DNA of 64,000 nucleotides. It comes from Allostella sp. ATCC 35155 (GTDB lineage: Bacteria > Pseudomonadota > Alphaproteobacteria > ATCC43930 > Allostellaceae). The stretch lies in the NCBI GenBank assembly GCA_006738865.1, contig AP019701.1:5157974-5221973 (forward strand), read 5' to 3'. This document shows positions 2,741 through 58,807 of this stretch, piece after piece; the first letter of the stretch is position 1; each line of letters begins with the position of its first letter. The translations under genes and the position numbers were made by a program. Under the pieces are notes generated by a model. The model searched no databases and was not told the origin of the DNA. It saw only the letters and a program-made list of their open reading frames with translations.

Positions 2741-3820
2741 GTGGGTGGCGCTCCCGCAGGGCTGGAGGCGCGCTCGCTCGTCAAGCGCTTCGGCGCGACG
2801 ACGGCGGTCGACGGCATCGACATCGCGGTCCGGCCCGGTGAGTTCTTCACCGTGCTGGGCCCGTCCGGCTGCGGCAAGACGACGTTCCTGCGCTTGGTCG
2901 CCGGCATCCTGGCGCCGGACGGCGGCAGCATCCGGATCGGTGCTGCCGATCTGACGCAGGCGCCGATCTGGGCACGGAACATCGGCCTCGTCTTTCAGAA
3001 CTACGCGCTGTTCCCGCACATGACGGTGGCGCAGAACGTGGGATTCGGGCTCGCCATGCGCCGCGTGCCGCGTGCGGATCGTGGGCCGAGGATCGCCCGG
3101 GCGCTGGAGACGGTGCGCCTCGACGGCTATGGCGGGCGGCGCCCGTCCGAACTGTCGGGCGGGCAGCAGCAGCGCGTGGCGCTGGCGCGCGCCATCGTCA
3201 TCGAGCCCGACCTGCTGCTGCTGGACGAGCCGCTATCCAATCTCGACGCCCGTCTGCGCGAGGACATGCGCAGCGAGCTGGCCGACCTGAAGCACCGGCT
3301 CGGCATCACGACCATCCTGGTCACGCACGACATCCACGAGGCCTTCTCCCTATCGGACCGCGTGGCGGTGATGCGGGCGGGTCGCGTCGAGCAGGTGGGG
3401 GCGCCGACCGAACTGTACGAACTGCCGGCCAACCGTTTCGTCGCGGGCTTTCTCGGGCCGGTGAACGAATGGACCGGCCGCGTCGGCGCGATCGCCGACG
3501 GCACGGCGGAGGTCGAGTTCGCGGGGTTGCGGTCCTGCCGGGTGCCGGCCCTGGCGGGCTGGCGCGGGGGCGACGAGGCCACGGTGATCCTGCGGCCGGA
3601 GCGCCTGGGGCTGACAGCCGCGAGCGCGGCCGGCGAGGGAGCGGTGGTCGGCCGGATCGACCAGGTGGCCCATCTCGGGAATCTGGTGAACTATCGCGTG
3701 GCGGCCGGCGGCCGCGCGCTGCTGGCGCAGGCCCCGGCCGGCCGCACGGGGCGCTTCGCGCTCGGCGACCGCGTCGCCGTCGCCTGGGACGACGCCGACC
3801 TGGCGCCGGTCGCTCCATGA
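2741..3820 (+). CDS. ABC transporter ATP-binding protein (PotA-like)
   Basis: Cytoplasmic ATPase of the importer, 359 residues. Walker A GPSGCGKT at 40-47, Q-loop FQNYALFP near 86, signature LSGGQ at 138-142, Walker B LLLLDEP at 158-164, then a C-terminal TOBE-type region typical of PotA/FbpC/UgpC ATPases. The start chosen is GTG 2741, 21 bp after the binding-protein stop; no strong ribosome site is visible, so translation may depend on coupling. The stop overlaps the next gene's ATG in an ATGA motif, showing tight operon organisation. Confidence 0.92.
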   Translation: MGGAPAGLEARSLVKRFGATTAVDGIDIAVRPGEFFTVLGPSGCGKTTFLRLVAGILAPDGGSIRIGAADLTQAPIWARNIGLVFQNYALFPHMTVAQNVGFGLAMRRVPRADRGPRIARALETVRLDGYGGRRPSELSGGQQQRVALARAIVIEPDLLLLDEPLSNLDARLREDMRSELADLKHRLGITTILVTHDIHEAFSLSDRVAVMRAGRVEQVGAPTELYELPANRFVAGFLGPVNEWTGRVGAIADGTAEVEFAGLRSCRVPALAGWRGGDEATVILRPERLGLTAASAAGEGAVVGRIDQVAHLGNLVNYRVAAGGRALLAQAPAGRTGRFALGDRVAVAWDDADLAPVAP

Positions 3821-29151: not shown

Positions 29152-30114
29152 ATGAGCCTCGCCGTCGCCATCCAGATGGACCCCATCGAGACCATCAACA
29201 TCGACGCCGACTCGTCCTTTGTCCTCGCGTTGGAGGCGCAACGGCGAGGGCATGCGCTCTACCACTACCTGCCGCAGCACCTGTCCCTGCGCGGAGGGCG
29301 GGTGGTGGCCCGCTGCCGCCCGCTGCAGGTGCGGCGCGAGAAGGGCAACCACCACAGCTTCGGCGCGTGGGAGACGGTCGACCTCGCCACCATGGACGTC
29401 GTCCTGATGCGGCAGGACCCGCCCTTCGACATGGCCTACATCACCGCGACCCATCTGCTGGAGCACATCCATCCGCAGACGCTGGTCGTGAACGACCCGG
29501 TGCGGGTGCGCAATGCGCCGGAGAAGCTCTACGTCACCCACTTTCCCGAACTGATGCCGCCGACCGTGATCACCGCCGACCGGCAGGAGATTCTGGCCTT
29601 CCGGGCCGAGCACAAGGACATCATCGTCAAGCCGCTGTTCGGCAATGGCGGTGCCGGCGTCTTCCATATCGGGCCCGAGGACGAGAACCTGTCGGCGCTC
29701 CTCGAGCTCTTCACCCAGCTCTACCGGGAGCCGATCATCGTCCAGCGCTACCTACCGGAGGTGCGCCAGGGCGACAAGCGCATCATCCTGGTCGACGGGG
29801 TGCCGGGCGGCGCCATCGACCGCGTGCCCGAGAAGGGCGAGGCGCGGGCCAACATGCATGCCGGCGCCAAGCCGCAGAAGGCGACGCTGACCGAGCGCGA
29901 CCGCGAGATCTGCGCCGCGATCGGCCCCGCGCTGCGCGAGGCGGGCCTCATCTTCGTCGGCATCGACGTCATCGGCGGCTACCTGACCGAGATCAACGTC
30001 ACCTCCCCGACCGGCATCCAGGAGATCAACCGCTTCGACGGCGTGCGCCTCGAATCGGACATATGGGACGCCATCGATCGCCGCCTCGCGGAGCGCAGCC
30101 GCCCGCCCGCCTGA
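29152..30114 (+). CDS. gshB: Glutathione synthetase
   Basis: 320-residue ATP-grasp ligase joining gamma-glutamylcysteine and glycine. Typical blocks: [18 protein letters not shown] at the N-terminus, [40 protein letters not shown] and [19 protein letters not shown], with SPTGIQEIN at the end. ATG 29152 has GGAG 7 nt upstream. Intact full-length gene; a 201-bp piece of a second, 97.5% identical copy occurs at 35549-35749. Confidence 0.96.
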
Positions 30115-30130
30115 CCATGATCGGCTGACC

Positions 30131-31183
30131 TCAGGGCGACGGCAGCACCAGCGCCGCCGCCCAGCGGCGTGCGACGGCTGCGGGCGAGAAGCGGAGCCTC
30201 ACCTCCGCCTGCCCGGCCGCAATCCGCGCCAATGCCTCGGCCGGGTTGGCCAGCGCCCAGCGGACACCCTCGGACGCCTCGCCCACCCAGGCACCGCGGT
30301 CGAGCTCCCGGTAGGCCGGGATCGGCGCCGCGAGGGCGAATCGCCCCTGGCGGATCGCCTCCACCAGGCGGTTGTGCGACTTGGCATCGGCGCGGGGGTC
30401 GCCTGCCGGCTGGGGCAGCAGCACGAAATCGGCGTCGGCCAGCGCGGCCGTGACTGCGGGCAGCGACCAGTCCCGGTGCGTGATGCGCCAGGATCCCTCG
30501 ACCCGGTCGATCATCGCATCGGCGAGGCGAGTGACCTCGCCGGCCGCTTCGGTCTGCGTCACGACGGTGAGAGACAGGCGGCGATCGGCCAGCCGGATGC
30601 CGTCGAGCGTGCGGGCCAGCAGACGGGCCGTCCCGGGGCCCCAGGTGCCGAACCAGACGAACCGCAGCTCGGGGCCGGGAGCGAACCGGGGTCGTGCCAT
30701 CTCCTCCGTCTCGGCCGGATCCTCGACGACGAGCGGCGCGTGGTGGCAGCGCGGGCGGTAGTGGTCGGCCAGCCAGCGGCTCGGCACGACCGGGACGAAG
30801 CGCCCGAGCACGAGGTCGCGATGGCGACCGGCCGGTCCCTCGTCCGCGGCCATCAGGTCGCAGACATCGGCATGGATCGGCCGCGCGGCCGCCAGCCGCT
30901 CCAGCGCATCGAGGGCGGCAGAGCAGATCCCGGGGTGCAGGGCAAAGGTGCCGGGCGTCGGCTTGCCCAGGACGATGCGGATCGCCGGATCGCGAAGCCG
31001 CTCGGCGATGCCCGGCCGGGCGATGTCGGTCAGGGAGACGAGGCCGGTCTCGTGCCCCAGGGCACGCAGGCCGGCCGCGGGAACGAGGCAGCGCAGGCGG
31101 ACGCTCGCCACCGGTGAATCCAGCACCTGTCCGGCGGCGAGCGTGGGCGCTGCCACACCGTTGACGAAGACGATCCTTGCCAT
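30131..31183 (-). CDS. Glycosyltransferase-like protein (GT-B type, tentative)
   Basis: 350 residues. An N-terminal [20 protein letters not shown] start, a mid segment LRFVWFGTWGPGTARLLART and a C-terminal half with ADADFVLLPQPAGDPRADAKSHNRLVEAI, which resembles the donor-binding region of GT-B glycosyltransferases. I do not recognise a named family or acceptor. ATG 31183 begins the conserved region; a longer frame is not supported. It is divergent from the truncated comM copy and convergent with gshB. The 5' end (about 41 codons) recurs at 35750-35871. Confidence 0.6.
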   Translation of the reverse strand: MARIVFVNGVAAPTLAAGQVLDSPVASVRLRCLVPAAGLRALGHETGLVSLTDIARPGIAERLRDPAIRIVLGKPTPGTFALHPGICSAALDALERLAAARPIHADVCDLMAADEGPAGRHRDLVLGRFVPVVPSRWLADHYRPRCHHAPLVVEDPAETEEMARPRFAPGPELRFVWFGTWGPGTARLLARTLDGIRLADRRLSLTVVTQTEAAGEVTRLADAMIDRVEGSWRITHRDWSLPAVTAALADADFVLLPQPAGDPRADAKSHNRLVEAIRQGRFALAAPIPAYRELDRGAWVGEASEGVRWALANPAEALARIAAGQAEVRLRFSPAAVARRWAAALVLPSP

Positions 31184-31948
31184 GCGGCCGGCAGGCTGAC
31201 ATGCGGGCGTGCGACGCGCCAGCGCCACCCCGTCCCGAATGTCCGAAGACGGACCGGTGGCAGGACGGCGCGCGGGCTCCTACACTCGATCGGAGCAGAG
31301 GGAGGGGGGATGGTCGCGCGGATCGCGACGGTCGCGTTCCAGGGCATCGAGGTGCGCGCGGTCGACGTTCAGGTTCAGATGGCGGCGGGGCTGCCGACCT
31401 TCGCGCTCGTCGGCCTGCCCGACAAGGCGGTGGCGGAGAGCCGCGAGCGGGTGCGCGCGGCGCTGGCCGCGATGGGCCTCGCCCTGCCGCCCAAGCGCAT
31501 CACGGTCAACCTGTCGCCGGCCGACCTTCTGAAGGAGGGCAGCCATTTCGACCTGCCGATCGCGCTTGGCCTACTGGTCGCCATGGGCGTCCTGCCGGCG
31601 GATGCGATGGCGGACTTCGTGGCGTTGGGGGAACTGGCGCTGGACGGCGCGCTGGCGCCGGTCGCGGGCGTGCTGCCGGCGGCGGTCCATGCCAACGCCC
31701 AGGGCCGCGGCCTGATCTGTCCCGAGGCATCGGGCGGCGAGGCGGCCTGGGCGGGCGAGATGACGATCATCGCCGCCCCCAGCCTGCTCTCGCTGGTCAA
31801 TCATGTGAAGGGCGTGCAGCAGCTGGCGCCGCCCCGGCCGCGTCTGGCCGACGATGGCGGGCCCCTGCCCGACCTCGCCGCGGTCAAGGGCCAGGAGACC
31901 GCCAAGCGCGCGCTCGAGGTCGCCGCGGCCGGCGGGCACAACCTGCTG
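31061..31948 (+). repeat. Homologous segment, copy A (glycosyltransferase 5' end, intergenic, comM 5' part)
   Basis: About 888 bp aligned with 35749-36635 (copy B). Over the comM part (639 bp) I count about 20 differences, roughly 97% identity, nearly all at synonymous third positions; only three change residues. The copies are offset by 4687 bp in comM and 4688 bp in the glycosyltransferase part. The homology ends abruptly at 31948. Confidence 0.9.
31310..31948 (+). pseudogene. comM: Truncated comM, N-terminal 213 codons
   Basis: The frame starts like the intact comM at 35997 with the same ribosome site (GAGGGAGGGGGG) and runs for 213 codons, ending right before the P-loop (which begins three residues further in the full gene). 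Reading then continues in frame through unrelated DNA for 64 more codons to a stop at 32143, overlapping the restriction-modification gene start by 10 bp. The N-terminal Lon-substrate-like domain is complete but the AAA+ ATPase part is gone, so helicase-type ComM function is lost. Confidence 0.88.
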
Positions 31949-32133
31949 CTATTTTCACCCATTATATCCAAAGCCATCGAATGGCTTGGGCTGGGTGCTT
32001 CCGGCCTAGACCGAGGCACATCCTTTCAGCAGGCCGGTACCTCTAACCAACTCTTGCGGCCGGCGGGCGTGTCATTCAGACAAGGCATCGGGCTCCCTGA
32101 AGGGCCTCAACAATCTAACGACTCGGAAGCACG

Positions 32134-34539
32134 ATGCCGCTAACGAACGCGCAACAGGACTGGTACGCGCGAGCAATCCTGGACCTCGACCCCGCTAGTG
32201 AGATCGTTCGGCTCGACCGACTAGGTAATCTGGTCCACTACTCGGCCGAGATTGCCACTGATGAGAGCCACTCCAAGCCGCTTACGCCTGAAGAGTGGGT
32301 CCATGCCCTCGCCTGTGTGTTGCTTGTCAAAGAGTTAGGCTATCCCATTGGACGCCTGGTGCACGAGCGGCGCATCGAGCACGGTTCGTCTGGGTCGAAT
32401 GCCGATGAGATCGACATCGTCGTTCTAGACGGCGACGGTCGACCCTACGCAGTCTGGGAACTGAAATCCGCTGAAGCGTATGCGGGCGAGCTTGAGACGG
32501 CTACCAGATTGCAGCTATTCGGGACGGTGCCCCTGCTCACCAGTGGCGCCCCCACGTTCATCGTTTGCGCTACCATAGATCCTGGGGGTGCCGTTCCGGA
32601 GTTCAAGCAGCGCTGCATCGACTACCGCGAACACAAAGACTACGAGGCATGGCTGGCTGCGGGTAAGCCAGCGGTCCCCGCATTTCCGCGGGAGTATTTC
32701 GAGCCAGATTACCAGCCTTACACGCGCGGTGGGGCGCGGGACCTTAAAACGACCTGCACGCTTGCCGAGTTCAAGGCGGTGGCGGCTTCATTTCACAATG
32801 AGTTTTTTGCGGAACACCCCGACAACCAGCTTTTCGAAGACCTCATTCGTTGTTTGCTGGCGAAGATTTATTCTGAAAAAAACACTCAGACGGGAAGTCA
32901 GTACGAGTTCCAGGTCTTGATGCCACACGGCAAGCCCGAGTCGGCGGCGAGCGTCTTCCAGCGAGTGAATGCATTGTACGCGAGGGCGTACCAGCATTAC
33001 ATCGAACCCGGTCGGTCAGACGAAATAGACCCGCGTCGTTTCCCAGCCGAGCGGGTTAAATCAGTTGTACAGCAAATTGAAGGAATGGCGCTAACTAGAG
33101 GAGCGGCGCTGAACGCAGACATTATTGGTGCATTCTTCGAGGAGGTTCTCCGGTCCGGGTTCAAGCAGGACCGTGGTATGTACTTCACGCACGATAACAT
33201 TGTCCGCTTTATGGTTGAGGCGGTAGGCTTGCGCGACCTGACCCGTAAGAAATGGCGGTCCGCGTCTCATCCGGAGCAGCGACTGCCTTATGTATTCGAC
33301 CCCGCCTGCGGGAGCGGTACTTTCCTTCTTCACTCAATGTACGCGATTACAGATGAGATTAGGTCGAATCGGGCGTGGTTCGCCCGAACTGATAGCGACG
33401 AGGATTTTCTGAACCAGCATCTGAGCGATGCGTCGCCGAACGGCTGGGCGAAGGACTTCCTCTACGGCTTCGATCCTAAGTTCATTATGGCAATGACAGC
33501 CAAGCTGAACATGGTGCTGCATGGCGACGGGGTGGCGCACCTGTTCAAGGAGGATGCTTTTAGAACGATGGGCTCGTATCACGATGCCCGCTTGCGGCCG
33601 GTCACCGGTCCGACAAGAAGTCTACCGGAAAATGTTTACCCGCCGAAGATGTGCGAGACATTCGATGTTGTCATTTCCAATCCACCGTTCGGTGTAACGC
33701 TGTCCACAGAAACGCGCCATACCTTAAGTAAGGCGTTCACGCTGCCTCCTAATTCTTCGACTGAGGCGCTGTTCGTAGAGAGAGCGTTCCAGTTGTTGAA
33801 GCCGCATGGGCGCTTGGCGGTCGTGCTACCGGAGTCCATTCTCAATGCGGCCGACACCGACCTGCGACTTTTCTTGATGCGTATGTTTCACATACGTGCA
33901 GTGGTCACGATGCCACGCCACGTATTCGTGGACACACCTACGCTGACCAGCCTTCTATTTGCTCAGAAGAAGTTACCTGATGAGATCTCCACATGGGATC
34001 GTACCTGGGATGAGGAAAAAGCTAAGATTGAGGCGCAGGTGGCGAAGGCACGCGGCCACCTAACCGTGGCCGCCACGCGTGCTTTCTCCTCGGCGAATGC
34101 TTTGGAAACGGCGGTGCTCAACGAGCTATCCGTGATCGGCCCGCGGACCCTGTGGGTCATGAAGCGAGGCCAGAATGGAGGTCCACTGACCTTTGGCCTA
34201 CCACCCCACATCGCGGCCGCACCGGATGCGGCGCGCTACTACCAGGACCTCCTCCGCTCGCCAGGATTCCTAGATTTGTCGCGACAGGCCGTGTTTAGAG
34301 GAGTTGCGGCGCGGCTGGACGCGACCTGGCCATGTTACGCGGTGGAGGAAGTTGGCTTCAAGTTGAGCAGGCGGGGCGAGAGGATACGCGAGAATCAGCT
34401 TGCTACCTTCGTCGGGACGAAGTCGGAGAGGGAAGTTCCTAATCTGCATCTTGCTACCGAGACGGTACGGGTTGTCGTCAATCGTGAGCATGCTCGGACG
34501 GTGTTGGACTGCATGGTCTCTGAAATGGTGTGGAGCTAA
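32134..34539 (+). CDS. Restriction-modification fusion: nuclease domain plus N6-adenine DNA methylase
   Basis: 801 residues. The N-terminal 180 residues resemble the HsdR nuclease domain with a PD-(D/E)xK site: D94 (DEIDIVV), E109 and K111 (VWELKSAE). Then an HsdM-type helical region and a methylase with motif I DPACGSGTF (389-397) and motif IV NPPF (516-519), plus STEALFVERAFQLLKPHGR. No helicase/translocase domain is present here or nearby. A nuclease-methylase chain with a separate specificity subunit is the layout of BcgI-like Type IIB enzymes; a Type I M subunit with an HsdR-like N-terminus is the alternative. ATG 32134 has GGAAG 5 nt upstream. GC is lower than in neighbours. Confidence 0.85.
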   Translation: MPLTNAQQDWYARAILDLDPASEIVRLDRLGNLVHYSAEIATDESHSKPLTPEEWVHALACVLLVKELGYPIGRLVHERRIEHGSSGSNADEIDIVVLDGDGRPYAVWELKSAEAYAGELETATRLQLFGTVPLLTSGAPTFIVCATIDPGGAVPEFKQRCIDYREHKDYEAWLAAGKPAVPAFPREYFEPDYQPYTRGGARDLKTTCTLAEFKAVAASFHNEFFAEHPDNQLFEDLIRCLLAKIYSEKNTQTGSQYEFQVLMPHGKPESAASVFQRVNALYARAYQHYIEPGRSDEIDPRRFPAERVKSVVQQIEGMALTRGAALNADIIGAFFEEVLRSGFKQDRGMYFTHDNIVRFMVEAVGLRDLTRKKWRSASHPEQRLPYVFDPACGSGTFLLHSMYAITDEIRSNRAWFARTDSDEDFLNQHLSDASPNGWAKDFLYGFDPKFIMAMTAKLNMVLHGDGVAHLFKEDAFRTMGSYHDARLRPVTGPTRSLPENVYPPKMCETFDVVISNPPFGVTLSTETRHTLSKAFTLPPNSSTEALFVERAFQLLKPHGRLAVVLPESILNAADTDLRLFLMRMFHIRAVVTMPRHVFVDTPTLTSLLFAQKKLPDEISTWDRTWDEEKAKIEAQVAKARGHLTVAATRAFSSANALETAVLNELSVIGPRTLWVMKRGQNGGPLTFGLPPHIAAAPDAARYYQDLLRSPGFLDLSRQAVFRGVAARLDATWPCYAVEEVGFKLSRRGERIRENQLATFVGTKSEREVPNLHLATETVRVVVNREHARTVLDCMVSEMVWS

Positions 34540-34547
34540 AATCCCCT

Positions 34548-35357
34548 ATGTCACTCCCACTCCGTGCGAGATGCAGCCTGAGCGCCGTTGCTCGCAGCCC
34601 TACGTTCCGTATCGACGCCAAGCAGGCGGCGCCCAGTAGCGTCCAACTCGACGCCATCCTGGATAGGGTCCCTACTTTCTACCTCAATGAGTTCCTGCCC
34701 GAGCCGTTCGTCAAAGGTAGACAGCCGATTTACCTCGACGACACGCAAGACGAGGGGGCTATGGTCATCAACACTGGTGCCGTGCGTCCGCTCGGTATCA
34801 CCTTCGGGCTTTGTCGCCGGATCTCGTCCTCCGACTTTGAGGGCCTCGCTCCTGCGCGTAAACTTCGAGACGGCGATGTCCTGCTCACCACGGACGGGGG
34901 CACCTCCATCGGCAAGGTCGCGGTCTTCAAGACACCCTCAGGTGAAGACGGAACTCTGATGGAGTGTGGCTTTACGGTGGACAGTCACGTGGCCGTGCTT
35001 AGGCCGTGCGGTATTTCGCCGGTACTACTGGCTTATCTACTTTGCTCGCCAATGGGGCAGATCCAGTTCCAGCGCGCCGAGAGCGGTGCTAGCGGCCAGA
35101 CCGCAGTGAGTGAGGAGGATGTCAGACGGTTCCGCTTTCCCCGCGTCCCAGAGGCGGCGTTCGAGCAAGCCCGTGAGAGTTTTACGGCAGCGCTGGAGGA
35201 GGCCCGCAGGCTTGAGGCCGAGGCGTACAAGAAGCGCCAGGACGGATGGGGGGCCTTTGAGGCAATCCTGTTGCAGGCCGATGGCGAGCAGCCGGTTCGG
35301 CTCGCGGCGCGGGCTCGTCCGAACGAGAAGCGCCAAAGGCAAGCTATCGCCGGATAG
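34548..35357 (+). CDS. Restriction-modification specificity subunit (HsdS-like, single recognition domain)
   Basis: 269 residues. Blocks typical of S subunits: RDGDVLLTTDGGTSIGKVAVF, SGQTAVSEEDVRRFRFPRVP, then a C-terminal helix (AFEQARESFTAALEEARRLE) of the coiled-coil spacer kind. Only one target-recognition domain is visible, about half of a usual HsdS, so a dimer would be needed for a bipartite site. ATG 34548 is 8 bp after the methylase stop; a GTG at 34530 overlaps the methylase end. It determines the DNA sequence recognised by the upstream enzyme (known for the family). Confidence 0.82.
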   Translation: MSLPLRARCSLSAVARSPTFRIDAKQAAPSSVQLDAILDRVPTFYLNEFLPEPFVKGRQPIYLDDTQDEGAMVINTGAVRPLGITFGLCRRISSSDFEGLAPARKLRDGDVLLTTDGGTSIGKVAVFKTPSGEDGTLMECGFTVDSHVAVLRPCGISPVLLAYLLCSPMGQIQFQRAESGASGQTAVSEEDVRRFRFPRVPEAAFEQARESFTAALEEARRLEAEAYKKRQDGWGAFEAILLQADGEQPVRLAARARPNEKRQRQAIAG

Positions 35358-35548
35358 GAAGCCCCAGACGCGCGCCGCCAGCAGTCAGTCCGGACGGTAT
35401 GTTCCGGCTCAGAAGCGTCAGGGTCTGGCTGGTGCGCCGCTTTGACAGCCATTTCGCATCGCCGAGGTAGGCGGGACCTGGGCTCTCGCCGCCTCACCGA
35501 ACTTTAGGGCCTGGGGTGAGAGCTGAGTGTTGCGCGTCAGGTAGGGCA
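35358..35548. other. Gene-free right end of the island
   Basis: 190 bp between the specificity gene and the gshB fragment. No gene, hairpin terminator or att-like repeat is evident. It is the probable backbone remnant of the element that carried the cassette (inference). Confidence 0.4.
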
Positions 35549-35749
35549 TGGCCCGCTGCCGCCCGCTGCAGGTGCGGCGCGAGAAGGGCAACCACCACAG
35601 CTTCGGCGCGTGGGAGACGATCGACCTCGCCACCATGGACGTCGTCCTGATGCGGCAGGACCCGCCCTTCGACATGGCCTACATCACGGCGACCCATCTC
35701 CTGGAGCACATCCACCCGCAGACCCTGGTCGTGAACGACCCGGTGCGGG
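35549..35749 (+). pseudogene. gshB: gshB internal fragment
   Basis: 201 bp matching 29306-29506 of intact gshB with five substitutions. It covers about codons 52-118, without start, ATP-grasp core or end. At 35749 it joins directly to the reversed 5' end of the glycosyltransferase-like gene; compared with the intact locus 1554 bp (29507-31060) are missing, with a GGG shared at the joint. Non-functional. Confidence 0.9.
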
Positions 35750-36635
35750 GCACGCAGGCCGGCCGCGGGGACGAGGCAGCGCAGGCGGACGCTCGCCACC
35801 GGCGAATCCAGCACCTGTCCGGCGGCGAGCGTGGGTGCCGCCACGCCGTTGACGAAGACGATCCTTCCCATGCGGTCGGCAGGCTGACATGCGGGTGCCC
35901 GTCGCGCCAGCGCCACCCGGTTGATGCGCACCGGGACGGACGGGTGACAGGACGGCGCGCGGACTTCTACACTCGATCGGAGCAGAGGGAGGGGGGATGG
36001 TCGCGCGGATCGCGACGGTCGCGTTCCAGGGCATCGAGGTGCGCGCGGTCGACGTTCAGGTGCAGATGGCGGCGGGGCTGCCGACCTTCGCGCTCGTCGG
36101 CCTGCCCGACAAGGCGGTGGCGGAGAGCCGGGAGCGGGTGCGCGCGGCGCTGGCCGCGATGGGCCTCGCCCTGCCGCCCAAGCGCATCACGGTCAACCTG
36201 TCGCCGGCCGACCTCCTGAAGGAGGGCAGCCATTTCGACCTGCCGATCGCCCTCGGCCTGCTGGTCGCCATGGGGGTCCTGCCGGCGGATGCGATGGCGG
36301 ATTTCGTGGCGTTGGGGGAACTGGCGCTGGACGGCGCGCTGGCGCCGGTCGCGGGCGTGCTGCCGGCGGCGGTCCATGCCAACGCCCAGGGCCGCGGCCT
36401 GATCTGTCCCGAGGCATCGGGCGGCGAGGCGGCGTGGGCGGGTGACATGACGGTCATCGCCGCCCCCAGCCTGCTGTCGCTGGTCAATCATGTGAAGGGC
36501 GTCCAGCAGCGGGCGCCGCCCCGGCCACGCCTGGCCGACGATGGCGGCCCTCTGCCCGACCTCGCCGCGGTCAAGGGCCAGGAGACGGCCAAGCGCGCGC
36601 TCGAGGTCGCCGCGGCCGGCGGGCACAACCTGCTG
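35749..36635 (+). repeat. Homologous segment, copy B (glycosyltransferase 5' end, intergenic, comM 5' part)
   Basis: Second copy of 31061-31948. Here the comM part runs on into the complete gene. The intergenic stretch between the glycosyltransferase start and comM is the most diverged part (several substitutions and a net 1-bp indel), while the coding part differs almost only synonymously. Confidence 0.9.
35750..35871 (-). pseudogene. 5' fragment of the glycosyltransferase-like gene
   Basis: About 41 codons from the ATG at 35871, [20 protein letters not shown] in place of MARIVFVNG in the intact gene, then fused out of context to gshB fragment sequence. The start codon and promoter side are intact, so a short nonsense product could be made. 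Confidence 0.85.
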
Positions 36636-56083: not shown

Positions 56084-58807
56084 ATGGCGACGTTCACGCT
56101 GACCAATGGTCCGGATCTCTTTCCGGATAACGACGACAATTCCGGATCGGACATCATCTACGGTCTGGCCGGCGTCGACACGATCGACGGCGGCGAAGCC
56201 AACGATACGGTCATCGGCGGCGATGCCGGCGACCTGATCGACGGCAGTGCCGGCAACGACAGCCTGTTCGGCGACCATCCGACGACCCTGGTCGGCATCA
56301 GCGGTGACGACACCATCCTCGGCGGCGACGGCGACGACAGCATCTTCGGCGGCCAGCTGAACGACTCGCTGCTCGGCGGCGACGACGACGACTTCATCCT
56401 CGGGGAGGATGGCGAGGACACGATTGCCGGCGGCAACGGCAACGACCAGGTCAGCGGCGGTGACGACGACGACTCGATCCTCGGCGAGGACGGCGACGAC
56501 TTCCTCTTCGGCGGGCTCGAGCGGGACGTGATGTTCGGCGGCGCCGGCGAGGACTCGGTCGTCGGCGGCCAGGACGACGACCTGCTATACGGCGACCAGG
56601 GCACGGATTTCCTCTTCGGCGGCAACGGCGACGATTTCCTCTCTGGCGGCCAGGACAACGACATTCTCTTCGGCGGCAACGGCGACGATCAGGCGATCGG
56701 CGGCACCGGCGAGGACTGGATCATCGACTGGGACGGCCAGGACACGCTGTCCGGCGGCGACGACAACGACATCGTCTTCGGCGGCAACGGCGACGACCAG
56801 ATCACCGGCGATGCGGGCGACGACACGCTGTTCGGCGGCTTCGACAACGACACGATATCCGGCGGCATCGGCAACGACTTCGCGTTCGGCGGCAACGGCG
56901 ACGATTCGATGGTCGGCGGCAACGGCGACGACATCGTCTTCGGCGGCAACGGCGACGATCTGGTCGATGGCGGCGACGGCAACGACTCGCTGTTCGGCGA
57001 CTTCGTCTTCGGTGGCAACGGCGACGATGATTTCGACGACACGCTGCTCGGCGGTGGTGGCGCCGATTTCGCCTTCGGCGGCAACGGCGACGACTCGATC
57101 ATCGGCGGCGAGGGCGACGACACGCTGATCGGTGACTGGGGCTATGACGACGATCCCGACAACGACGACTGGATCGAGGGCGGCAACGGCCACGACGACA
57201 TCTTCGGCGGCGACGAGAACGACTCGTTGTTCGGCGGCAAGGGCAACGACACGATCGACGGCGGCGACGACGAAGATCTGATCTACGGCGGCGACGGCGA
57301 CGACTCCCTCTATGGCGGCTACGACCAGGACGAGGGACCGGACTACACCGGCGACACGATCTACGGCGACAACGGCAACGACATCATCTTCGGGTCCGAG
57401 GATCGCGACCTGCTCTATGGCGGAGCAGGCAACGACACGATCGCTCCCGACTACAATCACGACGGTGAGATCGTCGCCGACGATGCCGGCGACTCCCTGT
57501 TCGGCGATTCGATCTGGGGCGGCCCGGGCGCGGACGAGATCCGCGGCTACGATGTCGGGGATCTGGGTGAAGACACGGTCTTCGACTTCACTCCGGGCAA
57601 GAACGCGGCACAGTCCGACTACATCGTGGTCGGCGGCGACTTCCGCGACCTCGACGGCGACGATCTGAGTTCGGACGGCATGCTCGACTTCGGGTCGGGC
57701 GTGGTCATGTACCTGCGCAACAATGGCGACCCGATCTCGGGCCAGATCGACGCCGACTACGACTCCGACGACGACCGCACGACGATCTGGATCCTGGACG
57801 ACGACGACCTGGCGCCGGAAGCGCCGGTGATCACGTCGTTCGCGGACAACACCGGCGATACGGCGGACAACGTCACGACCGACCAGACGCTGTACATCTA
57901 CGGCGAAGCCGAGGCGGACAGCACGGTCACGATCTTCCTGGAGGGGGTCGAGGTCGGTCAGACGACGACGGACGGCGGCGGGAACTTCGTGTTCGACTAC
58001 ACGGGAACCTCGCTGACGGCGGGGATCCACGGGTTCACGGCGACGGCGACGGACGGGTCGGCGAACGAGTCGGACGCCTCGGACCTCTTCCCGATCATCG
58101 TCCAGGGCAACAACAAGCTGACGAACGGCGACGACGTCTATGTCGCGACGGACGCGAAGAACAACATCTCCGGCAACAACGGCGAGGACCAGCTGTTCGG
58201 GCTCGGCGACAACGACACGCTGAAGGGCGGCAACGGCAACGACCTGCTCTATGGCGGGACGGAGAACGACCGGCTCGAAGGCGGCAACGACTCCGACAGC
58301 GCGTTCGGCGAGACCGGCAACGACACGGTCTACGGCCAGAACGGCAACGACTTCGGCGACGGCGGCGAAGGCAACGACCGCCTGGAGGGCGGGTCCGGCT
58401 CGGACACGATGGTGGGCGGCCAGGGTGCCGACCTGATCTATGGCGGCGCCGGCGACGACAGCCTGCTGGGCGGCGAGGGCGCGGACAAGCTGATCGGCAA
58501 CGAGGGGGCGGACTTCATCCACCTCGGCGGGGACGACGGCGCGAACGACACGGTGTACGGCACCAAGGTCGCGGACCTGACGGGCGACACGCTGGCGGGC
58601 TGGAGCGGGTCGGACGGTCTGGCGATCTCGGGCATCATGGCGATGAAGCACAAGCTGCTGGACAGCGTGGCGCTGGTGGACGGCGTGCTGTCGCTGTCGA
58701 AGGTGGGCGGCGGCGAGATCCAGTTCCTGGACGATCTCGGCGACCCGCTGGAGGGCACGACGGACGTGGTGTCGATGGGCGGCAACCTCTTCCTCTACAT
58801 CGTCTGA
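56084..58807 (+). CDS. RTX-type calcium-binding repeat protein with Ig-like domain (RTX-2)
   Basis: 907 residues. The N-terminus (MATFTLTNGPDLFPDNDD) resembles those of RTX-1 and RTX-3. Nonapeptide block about 25-520, a spacer with DTVFDFTPGKNAAQSDYIVV, a bacterial Ig-like domain (about 577-675: VITSFADNTGDTADNVTTDQ, GFTATATDGSANESD), a second RTX block about 680-830 and a non-repeat C-terminus ending NLFLYIV. No signal peptide, no catalytic domain. Type I secretion and calcium-dependent folding are inferred from the family. Only a run of six G before the ATG serves as a possible ribosome site. Confidence 0.87.
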   Translation: MATFTLTNGPDLFPDNDDNSGSDIIYGLAGVDTIDGGEANDTVIGGDAGDLIDGSAGNDSLFGDHPTTLVGISGDDTILGGDGDDSIFGGQLNDSLLGGDDDDFILGEDGEDTIAGGNGNDQVSGGDDDDSILGEDGDDFLFGGLERDVMFGGAGEDSVVGGQDDDLLYGDQGTDFLFGGNGDDFLSGGQDNDILFGGNGDDQAIGGTGEDWIIDWDGQDTLSGGDDNDIVFGGNGDDQITGDAGDDTLFGGFDNDTISGGIGNDFAFGGNGDDSMVGGNGDDIVFGGNGDDLVDGGDGNDSLFGDFVFGGNGDDDFDDTLLGGGGADFAFGGNGDDSIIGGEGDDTLIGDWGYDDDPDNDDWIEGGNGHDDIFGGDENDSLFGGKGNDTIDGGDDEDLIYGGDGDDSLYGGYDQDEGPDYTGDTIYGDNGNDIIFGSEDRDLLYGGAGNDTIAPDYNHDGEIVADDAGDSLFGDSIWGGPGADEIRGYDVGDLGEDTVFDFTPGKNAAQSDYIVVGGDFRDLDGDDLSSDGMLDFGSGVVMYLRNNGDPISGQIDADYDSDDDRTTIWILDDDDLAPEAPVITSFADNTGDTADNVTTDQTLYIYGEAEADSTVTIFLEGVEVGQTTTDGGGNFVFDYTGTSLTAGIHGFTATATDGSANESDASDLFPIIVQGNNKLTNGDDVYVATDAKNNISGNNGEDQLFGLGDNDTLKGGNGNDLLYGGTENDRLEGGNDSDSAFGETGNDTVYGQNGNDFGDGGEGNDRLEGGSGSDTMVGGQGADLIYGGAGDDSLLGGEGADKLIGNEGADFIHLGGDDGANDTVYGTKVADLTGDTLAGWSGSDGLAISGIMAMKHKLLDSVALVDGVLSLSKVGGGEIQFLDDLGDPLEGTTDVVSMGGNLFLYIV

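What the first reader, a model, noticed from the sequence alone, without database searches (positions are those of the whole stretch)
32134..35357. BcgI-like nuclease-methylase fusion with a half-size specificity subunit
The 801-residue protein joins a PD-(D/E)xK site (D94, E109, K111) to an N6-adenine methylase (DPACGSGTF, NPPF) and has no translocase, while the next gene is an S subunit with only one recognition domain. This matches the Type IIB logic (BcgI A and B subunits), but with half the usual specificity length. A symmetrical bipartite target read by an S dimer is predicted.
Basis: partly seen in the sequence, partly recalled or inferred. Interest (0 to 1): 0.55.

Follow-up and report, generated by a model that had tools for sequence, protein, structure and literature searches.

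The report
BsaXI-like restriction enzyme, half-size reader
Two adjacent genes encode a DNA-cutting-and-methylating enzyme and a half-length DNA-reading partner, built like the known enzyme BsaXI; the half-length partner is shared with relatives in four bacterial phyla, so it is probably a working design that reads a mirror-image target as a pair, a modest extension of known biology.

Summary
Window 32134-34539 encodes an 801-aa nuclease-methylase fusion whose best PDB match is RM.BsaXI, a Type IIB enzyme (phmmer 7e-88; Foldseek 1e-39). The four proven BsaXI nuclease residues (E73, D90, E105, K107) are kept as E78, D94, E109, K111. The next gene (34530-35357, 275 aa) is a single TRD plus one long helix; its model overlays the second half of S.BsaXI (Z 16.4). 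The single-contig genome has no HSDR_N hit. The half-size S is not a local truncation: the five closest relatives found (RM 49-74% identical, four phyla) all have a 241-275 aa S, while 61 of 75 more distant loci have an S ORF of 440 aa or more and 14 are cut or unclear. A symmetric bipartite target read by an S dimer is the best inference, with precedents: BplI, and BsaXI given an engineered half S (AC N5 GT). No activity was measured. It is a half-S, paddle-less member of a known kind. In passing: the pair sits in a 3.6 kb low-GC insert in comM, between diverged copies of the flanks.

The parts
32134..34539 (+). RM subunit, 801 aa: PD-(D/E)xK nuclease + helical connector + N6-adenine methylase + knob, no paddle
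32365..32466 (+). Catalytic residues E78, D94, E109, K111, equivalent to BsaXI E73, D90, E105, K107
   Evidence: alignment (counted by hand), mutagenesis list, conservation
33298..33324 (+). Methylase motif I DPACGSGTF (residues 389-397)
   Evidence: two glycines of the motif (G393, G395) invariant in 36 of 36 rows
33679..33690 (+). Methylase motif IV NPPF (residues 516-519)
   Evidence: invariant in 36 of 36 rows
33970..34332 (+). Knob-like multi-helical region (about residues 613-733)
   Evidence: secondary structure of model; BsaXI domain limits read
34530..35357 (+). Half-size specificity subunit, 275 aa, overlaps the RM stop by 10 nt
34530..35144 (+). Single target recognition domain (about residues 1-205)
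35151..35279 (+). Single long conserved-region helix (residues 208-250), presumed dimerisation arm
31949..35548 (.). Low-GC 3600-bp insert carrying RM and S; GC 58.8% against 69.6% for the window; GC3 0.66-0.71 against 0.92-0.94 in comM and gshB
31310..31948 (+). Interrupted 5' part of comM (213 codons kept), left of the insert
35549..36635 (+). Second copy of the flanks: gshB fragment (35549-35749) joined to the region before and the start of the intact comM (35748-36635)

Best explanation
It is a self-contained two-gene Type IIB-like restriction-modification system related to BsaXI. Shown by sequence and model: one RM polypeptide with a conserved PD-(D/E)xK site and a gamma-class N6-adenine methylase, and one S polypeptide with a single TRD and a single helix. 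Inferred: two S chains pair through their helices in opposite orientation, each carries one RM subunit, and the (RM)2(S)2 complex reads a symmetric, interrupted target (half-site, about 5-7 free bases, inverted half-site). It methylates one adenine on each strand of that target. When both half-sites are unmethylated it cuts on both sides at a fixed distance, without ATP or translocation. The half-size S is a stable, inherited design of this clade, not a decayed S gene.
For: RM.BsaXI is the top PDB match by sequence (7.3e-88, residues 29-627) and by fold over nearly the full length (1.0e-39, 806 columns; Z 30.4 at 13.2 A rmsd, 693 aligned). All four nuclease residues proven in BsaXI are conserved. 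S: model pLDDT 84.7, TRD plus helix 208-250, overlaying residues 239-476 (entry numbering) of S.BsaXI with Z 16.4, rmsd 3.7, 229 aligned. Half-size S in 5 of 5 close relatives, which span four phyla; an RM tree of 74 tips groups the window with the four of them whose RM ORF reached 700 aa, support 1.0. S and RM diverge together in this clade: 15 of 15 pairs have an S identity at or above the median, and 11 of 15 at or above the 95th percentile, of full-S pairs with similar RM identity. No third gene is shared by the flanks examined, and no HSDR_N in the genome. Precedents: halved S.BsaXI with BsaXI RM cuts outside AC N5 GT; BplI is palindromic with 1:1 subunits; natural single-TRD HsdS in H. 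pylori go with palindromic RTAY N5 RTAY and AAG N5 CTT; M.AhdI is 2M+2S.
Against: No activity, methylome, stoichiometry or target was measured. The S dimer was not modelled (only single chains can be folded here). The RM model is moderate overall (pLDDT 80.5, pTM 0.64), so the global rmsd to BsaXI is large (13-15 A). The BsaXI paddle, where D816A and E823A inactivate cutting (D816A with low residual activity), is absent. In BsaXI the TRD2-CR2 half alone did not express, and CR1-TRD2-CR2 only nicked; this S resembles that half. In H. pylori one single TRD of two tested alone gave no palindromic motif. The Anaerotruncus relative has a broken RM frame, and the RM of Roseomonas rosulenta is cut near the contig end.
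Confidence: 0.8

Rival explanations
1. One RM pairs with one half-size S and stays a 1:1 unit on DNA: a split Type IIG enzyme that reads a short asymmetric site and cuts on one side only.
For: Type IIG enzymes are described as half of a Type IIB enzyme, with one TRD. For BplI, whose subunits are reported as 1:1, one-sided binding in either of two orientations was discussed.
Against: The S keeps a 43-residue helix (208-250) of the kind that pairs in S.BsaXI. Halved S.BsaXI gave a symmetric target, and natural single-TRD HsdS also can.
Confidence: 0.12
2. The pair now works only as a methylase or is inactive; the S was truncated by the insertion.
For: The S gene ends 191 bp before the duplicated flank. 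The neighbouring comM copy is broken. One relative has a broken RM frame.
Against: The five close relatives in other contexts have S genes of the same size, and the C-terminal extension of the window S is shared with Roseomonas rosulenta. Both reading frames are intact and the nuclease residues are kept.
Confidence: 0.06
3. It is the methylase-specificity part of another defence system (MADS or BREX).
For: NCBIfam MAD2 scores 148 bits over residues 230-621; PADLOC mad2 and mad5 models hit RM and S.
Against: 148 bits is far below the MAD2 cut-off of 720; the three BREX PglX models listed also fall far below theirs. No accompanying gene is shared by the flanks of the window and its five relatives, and the RM carries its own nuclease.
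Confidence: 0.02

Closest known systems
BsaXI (Type IIB, RM.BsaXI + S.BsaXI; PDB 8w0p, 8w2p, 8w2q; PMC11997821, PMC9159934)
   Same: RM domain order nuclease-connector-methylase-knob, all four nuclease residues, gamma-class methylase, separate S gene of the TRD-helix type
   Different: S here is one TRD + one helix instead of two of each; RM lacks the paddle (61 residues after G741, against 141-165 in the 7 of 36 aligned sequences whose RM is 898-934 aa)
BsaXI RM with engineered TRD1-CR1 half S (PMC9159934)
   Same: RM fusion plus a single TRD-helix S; gave a symmetric target AC N5 GT and cutting 9-12 bases outside it
   Different: Engineered, with some imprecise cutting; here the half S is natural and its model overlays the TRD2-CR2 half
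BplI, AlfI, FalI (Type IIB with palindromic sites; PMC1892151)
   Same: Symmetric interrupted targets; BplI subunits are reported as 1:1
'Type 1 1/2' methylases such as M.AhdI (2M + 2S; PMC3874165)
   Same: Single-TRD S chains that pair to make a full specificity unit
   Different: No nuclease in the M chain; described as Type I methylase plus a separate Type IIP nuclease
Candidatus Brocadia sinica RM (928 aa) + stand-alone TRD2 (240 aa) noted in PMC9159934
   Same: Genome-mined RM with a half-size S
   Different: RM length suggests a paddle; not characterised in that paper; not compared here

Membership tests
Type IIB restriction-modification (BsaXI/BcgI-like) | Nuclease and N6-adenine methylase fused in one polypeptide | tested here: met
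Type IIB restriction-modification (BsaXI/BcgI-like) | Conserved nuclease residues E73, D90, E105, K107 of BsaXI | tested here: met
Type IIB restriction-modification (BsaXI/BcgI-like) | Separate or fused S of the TRD-CR type | tested here: met
BsaXI/BcgI subtype with two-TRD S and (RM)2S stoichiometry | S subunit with two TRDs | tested here: not met
   One TRD per S chain. Not a defining feature of Type IIB as a whole: BplI is reported as 1:1, and HaeIV is a single polypeptide that appears to form homodimers
Type IIB restriction-modification (BsaXI/BcgI-like) | No ATP-dependent translocase | tested here: met
   No helicase family in RM; no HSDR_N in own genome (other HsdR families not searched)
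Type IIB restriction-modification (BsaXI/BcgI-like) | Cuts both strands on both sides of a bipartite target at fixed distance | not testable with these tools
   needs enzyme
BsaXI structural subtype with paddle | Long antiparallel helix pair after the last methylase strand | tested here: not met
   Model has no such pair after residue 728; 61 residues after G741
Type I restriction-modification | HsdR with translocase | tested here: not met
   (HSDR_N family only, own genome)
MADS | MAD2 methylase at curated score | tested here: not met
   148 bits against cut-off 720

The most novel reading that the evidence does not exclude
The window pair belongs to an old, naturally half-S, paddle-less Type IIB clade in which RM and S have diverged together without TRD swapping, so that members in four phyla still read the same or nearly the same palindromic target. 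It could stand for the unfused form from which two-TRD S subunits arose, and it would show that double-strand cutting in this family needs no paddle.
Probability: 0.3. Interest if true: 0.5.

Novelty: new member of a known kind. Interest (0 to 1): 0.35.

Why it matters
Type IIB enzymes are used as tools (2b-RAD) and are a bridge between Type I and simple Type II systems. A natural half-S relative of BsaXI is a ready-made version of what was engineered in 2022. It predicts palindromic targets that a methylome can check in one experiment, and it offers a paddle-free enzyme with which to test one of the three cutting mechanisms proposed for BsaXI.

Tried and rejected
Close relatives of RM in phages and viral contigs: none found (no pattern match; 1 weak match, 22% over residues 329-613; 69 phage records hit, none covering 80% of the query). 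Plasmids: 624 records match, none covering 80%. RM is rare near the host: 1 of 385 sampled genomes of the class at E <= 1e-60, the host itself; 2 of 398 sampled in the phylum, host included; 1 of 146 relatives at E <= 1e-50, the host. BcgI as the nearest relative: not testable, no BcgI sequence was at hand. MADS/BREX: scores far below cut-offs. Terminal inverted repeats: the repeat finder gave only short imperfect pairs near the insert ends (for example I6, 17 nt at 82%); the insert has only 185 and 191 bp outside RM and S, too short for a transposase, and these were not searched further. RNA features: no Rfam match at the gathering score in the window. Predicting the target bases: not attempted. 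BplI's own paper is not held.

A limit of the genome check: PF01420 (Methylase_S) gave 0 matches in the own genome, but it also misses the window's own S, so diverged S genes elsewhere are not excluded. PF04313 (HSDR_N) gave 0. Both rang in 9 of 14 control genomes.

Dropped or limited rows: one search found 107 related loci and kept 80; 27 were not seen. The label half for L005-L009 was set by name in the script; their S lengths and single match come. Full means an ORF of at least 440 aa on the RM strand of the locus that matches the half-S profile at E <= 0.01; in 54 of 61 it starts within about 400 nt of the RM stop, in 6 an interval of 0.8-1.9 kb lies between, in 1 it overlaps RM by 97 nt. 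The other 14 loci: nine have under 700 nt of contig after the RM ORF (L011, L031, L042, L045, L046, L055, L067, L077, L084); five are split or odd (L015, L034, L050, L063, L079). L034 shows a 248-aa and a 201-aa S piece in a row, read as a broken full S. So a half S is not strictly excluded in these 14. L009 was left out of the tree (RM ORF under 700 aa) and of alignments A3 and A5. In A3 the first residues of L005 are misaligned; A5 uses a trimmed start. A5 used 36 and A4 32 sequences out of more available. The tree was rooted at its midpoint only, so which state (half or full S) came first is not shown. In the co-divergence test 57 of the 61 full-S loci were used (RM over 700 aa, S under 600 aa).
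Full report
What is there. The two reading frames exist exactly as described. The first (32134-34539, 801 aa) holds an HSDR_N_2 nuclease domain and an N6_Mtase domain and no helicase family. The second (34530-35357, 275 aa) overlaps it by 10 nt, has no Pfam hit and matches PADLOC Type I specificity models over one stretch (best 2.9e-15).

What it resembles. RM.BsaXI (PDB 8w0p) is by far the best sequence match in the PDB, 7.3e-88 over residues 29-627; the next best is 4.8e-10. The model of the whole protein (36 sequences, pLDDT 80.5, pTM 0.64) matches RM.BsaXI over 806 columns at 1.0e-39 and at Z 30.4, against 18.2 for the next entry that is not BsaXI. The large rmsd (13-15 A) probably reflects domain placement. 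The tool warns that residues before 208 are tested by few of the listed rows, and the nuclease domain of DNA-free BsaXI was itself placed from a predicted model, so the nuclease fold rests mainly on sequence. Counting along the printed alignment against the mutagenesis list of the BsaXI paper (PMC11997821; abstract, four named sections and passages seen), the four nuclease-domain residues whose change inactivates cutting, E73, D90, E105 and K107, correspond to E78, D94, E109 and K111. They are kept in 35 of 35 aligned sequences that cover the region, and NPPF in 36 of 36.

One difference in RM. BsaXI has a paddle, two long helices near the C-terminus, where D816A and E823A also inactivate cutting. 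The window protein has only 61 residues after G741, against 141-165 in the 7 of 36 aligned sequences whose RM is 898-934 aa long, and the model shows no helix pair there. The authors report that paddle residues are poorly conserved and that shorter homologues lack the paddle, so this is not unusual.

The S subunit. Its model (32 sequences, pLDDT 84.7) is one globular domain followed by one helix, 208-250. It overlays residues 239-476 of S.BsaXI, that is the TRD2-CR2 half, at Z 16.4 with 229 residues aligned; the highest Z (18.4) is to Esub1, a 196-residue single-TRD protein. A profile of the six half-S proteins matches full-length S proteins mainly in their C-terminal half and, in many, more weakly in the N-terminal half too, so it corresponds to one repeat unit.

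Is the half size real or damage? One scan of the species-genome collection with an alignment of the window RM and one relative gave 107 related loci, of which 80 were kept. Five stand apart at 49-74% RM identity: Roseomonas rosulenta (Pseudomonadota), Jeotgalibacillus salarius and Anaerotruncus colihominis (Bacillota), a Caldilineaceae MAG (Chloroflexota) and a Pirellulales MAG (Planctomycetota). All five have an S of 241-275 aa directly after RM. Of the 75 others, at 34% or less, 61 have an S ORF of at least 440 aa and 14 are cut by contig ends, split or unclear. The window and the four half-S relatives with an RM ORF of at least 700 aa form one clade with support 1.0 in a 74-tip tree. No other gene is shared by the flanks of the window and these five loci. 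So the half size is inherited, and the two genes look like the whole unit.

Co-divergence. Among the six half-S loci, S identity (0.40-0.71) follows RM identity (0.48-0.72) over 15 pairs. Compared with pairs of 57 full-S loci of similar RM identity (within 0.03), all 15 lie above the median and 11 of 15 at or above the 95th percentile; the other four lie at the 85th to 94.5th. The pairs are not independent, two RM sequences are partial, and full S proteins hold two TRDs, so this is suggestive only. It fits an S that has not swapped its TRD.

How it most likely works. In the halved-S experiment with BsaXI (PMC9159934, abstract and sections 12, 20 and 21 read), TRD1-CR1 with the BsaXI RM cut outside the symmetric site AC N5 GT; the other half (TRD2-CR2) did not express, and CR1-TRD2-CR2 only nicked. 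BplI, a two-chain Type IIB enzyme with subunits reported as 1:1, has a palindromic site; AlfI and FalI sites are palindromic too (PMC1892151, passages). Natural single-TRD HsdS proteins of Helicobacter pylori go with palindromic motifs, although one TRD tested alone did not give its palindrome (PMC3936762, passages). An engineered half HsdS dimerises (PMC6158711, passages), and M.AhdI is 2M+2S (PMC3874165, passages and section 35). By analogy, two half S chains should pair through the helix and each hold one RM. The result would be a symmetric interrupted target, m6A on both strands, and cuts on both sides without ATP. The parts and folds are shown; the dimer, target and cutting are inferred.

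Stand-alone check. The host genome is a single 5.34 Mb contig (98.86% complete). It has no HSDR_N and no Methylase_S match at E <= 0.001, while each family rings in 9 of 14 control genomes. The Methylase_S model also misses the window's own S, so that negative is weak; other HsdR families were not searched.

Surroundings. The pair lies in a 3600-bp insert (31949-35548) with GC 58.8% in a 69.6% window and GC3 of 0.66-0.71 against 0.92-0.94 for comM and gshB, so it was probably acquired. The insert splits a first copy of comM after codon 213. A second, intact comM follows, preceded by a 201-bp piece of gshB: 29306-29506 matches 35549-35749 at 97.5%, and 31060-31948 matches 35748-36635 at 94.7%. 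This recalls insertion with long target duplication reported for other R-M systems, which is on the order of 100 bp (PMC3874152, passages). But the two comM copies differ by 17 synonymous and 3 non-synonymous changes in 636 bp (dS 0.102, dN 0.0066), and the changes are spread over both copies (7 and 11 derived, 2 unresolved, against one relative). A broken copy would not stay under such selection, so one copy probably came in from a related strain together with the insert. In three genus relatives comM matches without an insert, and RM is absent. In the two of them where both genes lie on one contig gshB and comM are about 8-9 kb apart; in the third they lie on different contigs.

Novelty. The architecture is a natural counterpart of an engineered one, and BplI is a biochemical precedent. 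PMC9159934 already lists stand-alone TRD2 homologues and one RM + TRD2 pair in a Brocadia genome. In seven literature searches (five of them on Type IIB or half-size S) and the passages read I saw no characterised natural half-S BsaXI relative, but most subscription papers and REBASE were not searchable. I therefore call it a new member of a known kind, with a distinct half-S clade as the part worth testing.

Noticed in passing
window 29306-31948 and 35549-36635: Diverged duplicate flanks around the R-M insert: a broken comM with intact gshB on the left, a gshB fragment plus intact comM on the right; 94.7-97.5% identical, comM differences mostly synonymous (dN/dS about 0.065), suggesting one copy was imported from a related strain.
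   Followed up: partly
window 35735-35765: In the right-hand copy about 1.55 kb (gshB end and most of the opposite-strand gene) is missing; the gshB piece is joined to the region before comM at a short GG(G) overlap.
   Followed up: partly
window 56535-57120: Tandem-like repeat (about 424 bp, 71% identical, offset 162 bp) inside the ORF 56084-58807.
   Followed up: no
window 2865-2962: ARAGORN tRNA-Gly(gcc) call of 98 nt, unusually long, overlapping predicted ORFs, and not reported by Rfam at its gathering score; may be a chance match.
   Followed up: partly
L009 5944-8361: The Anaerotruncus colihominis RM frame is broken (668 aa, then a 74-aa piece) while its half S is intact.
   Followed up: no
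PDB 8vsq/8vsr (Esub1): The S model's best Z (18.4) is to Esub1, a 196-residue protein solved alone and with Prx; a stand-alone single-TRD protein whose role I did not pursue.
   Followed up: no
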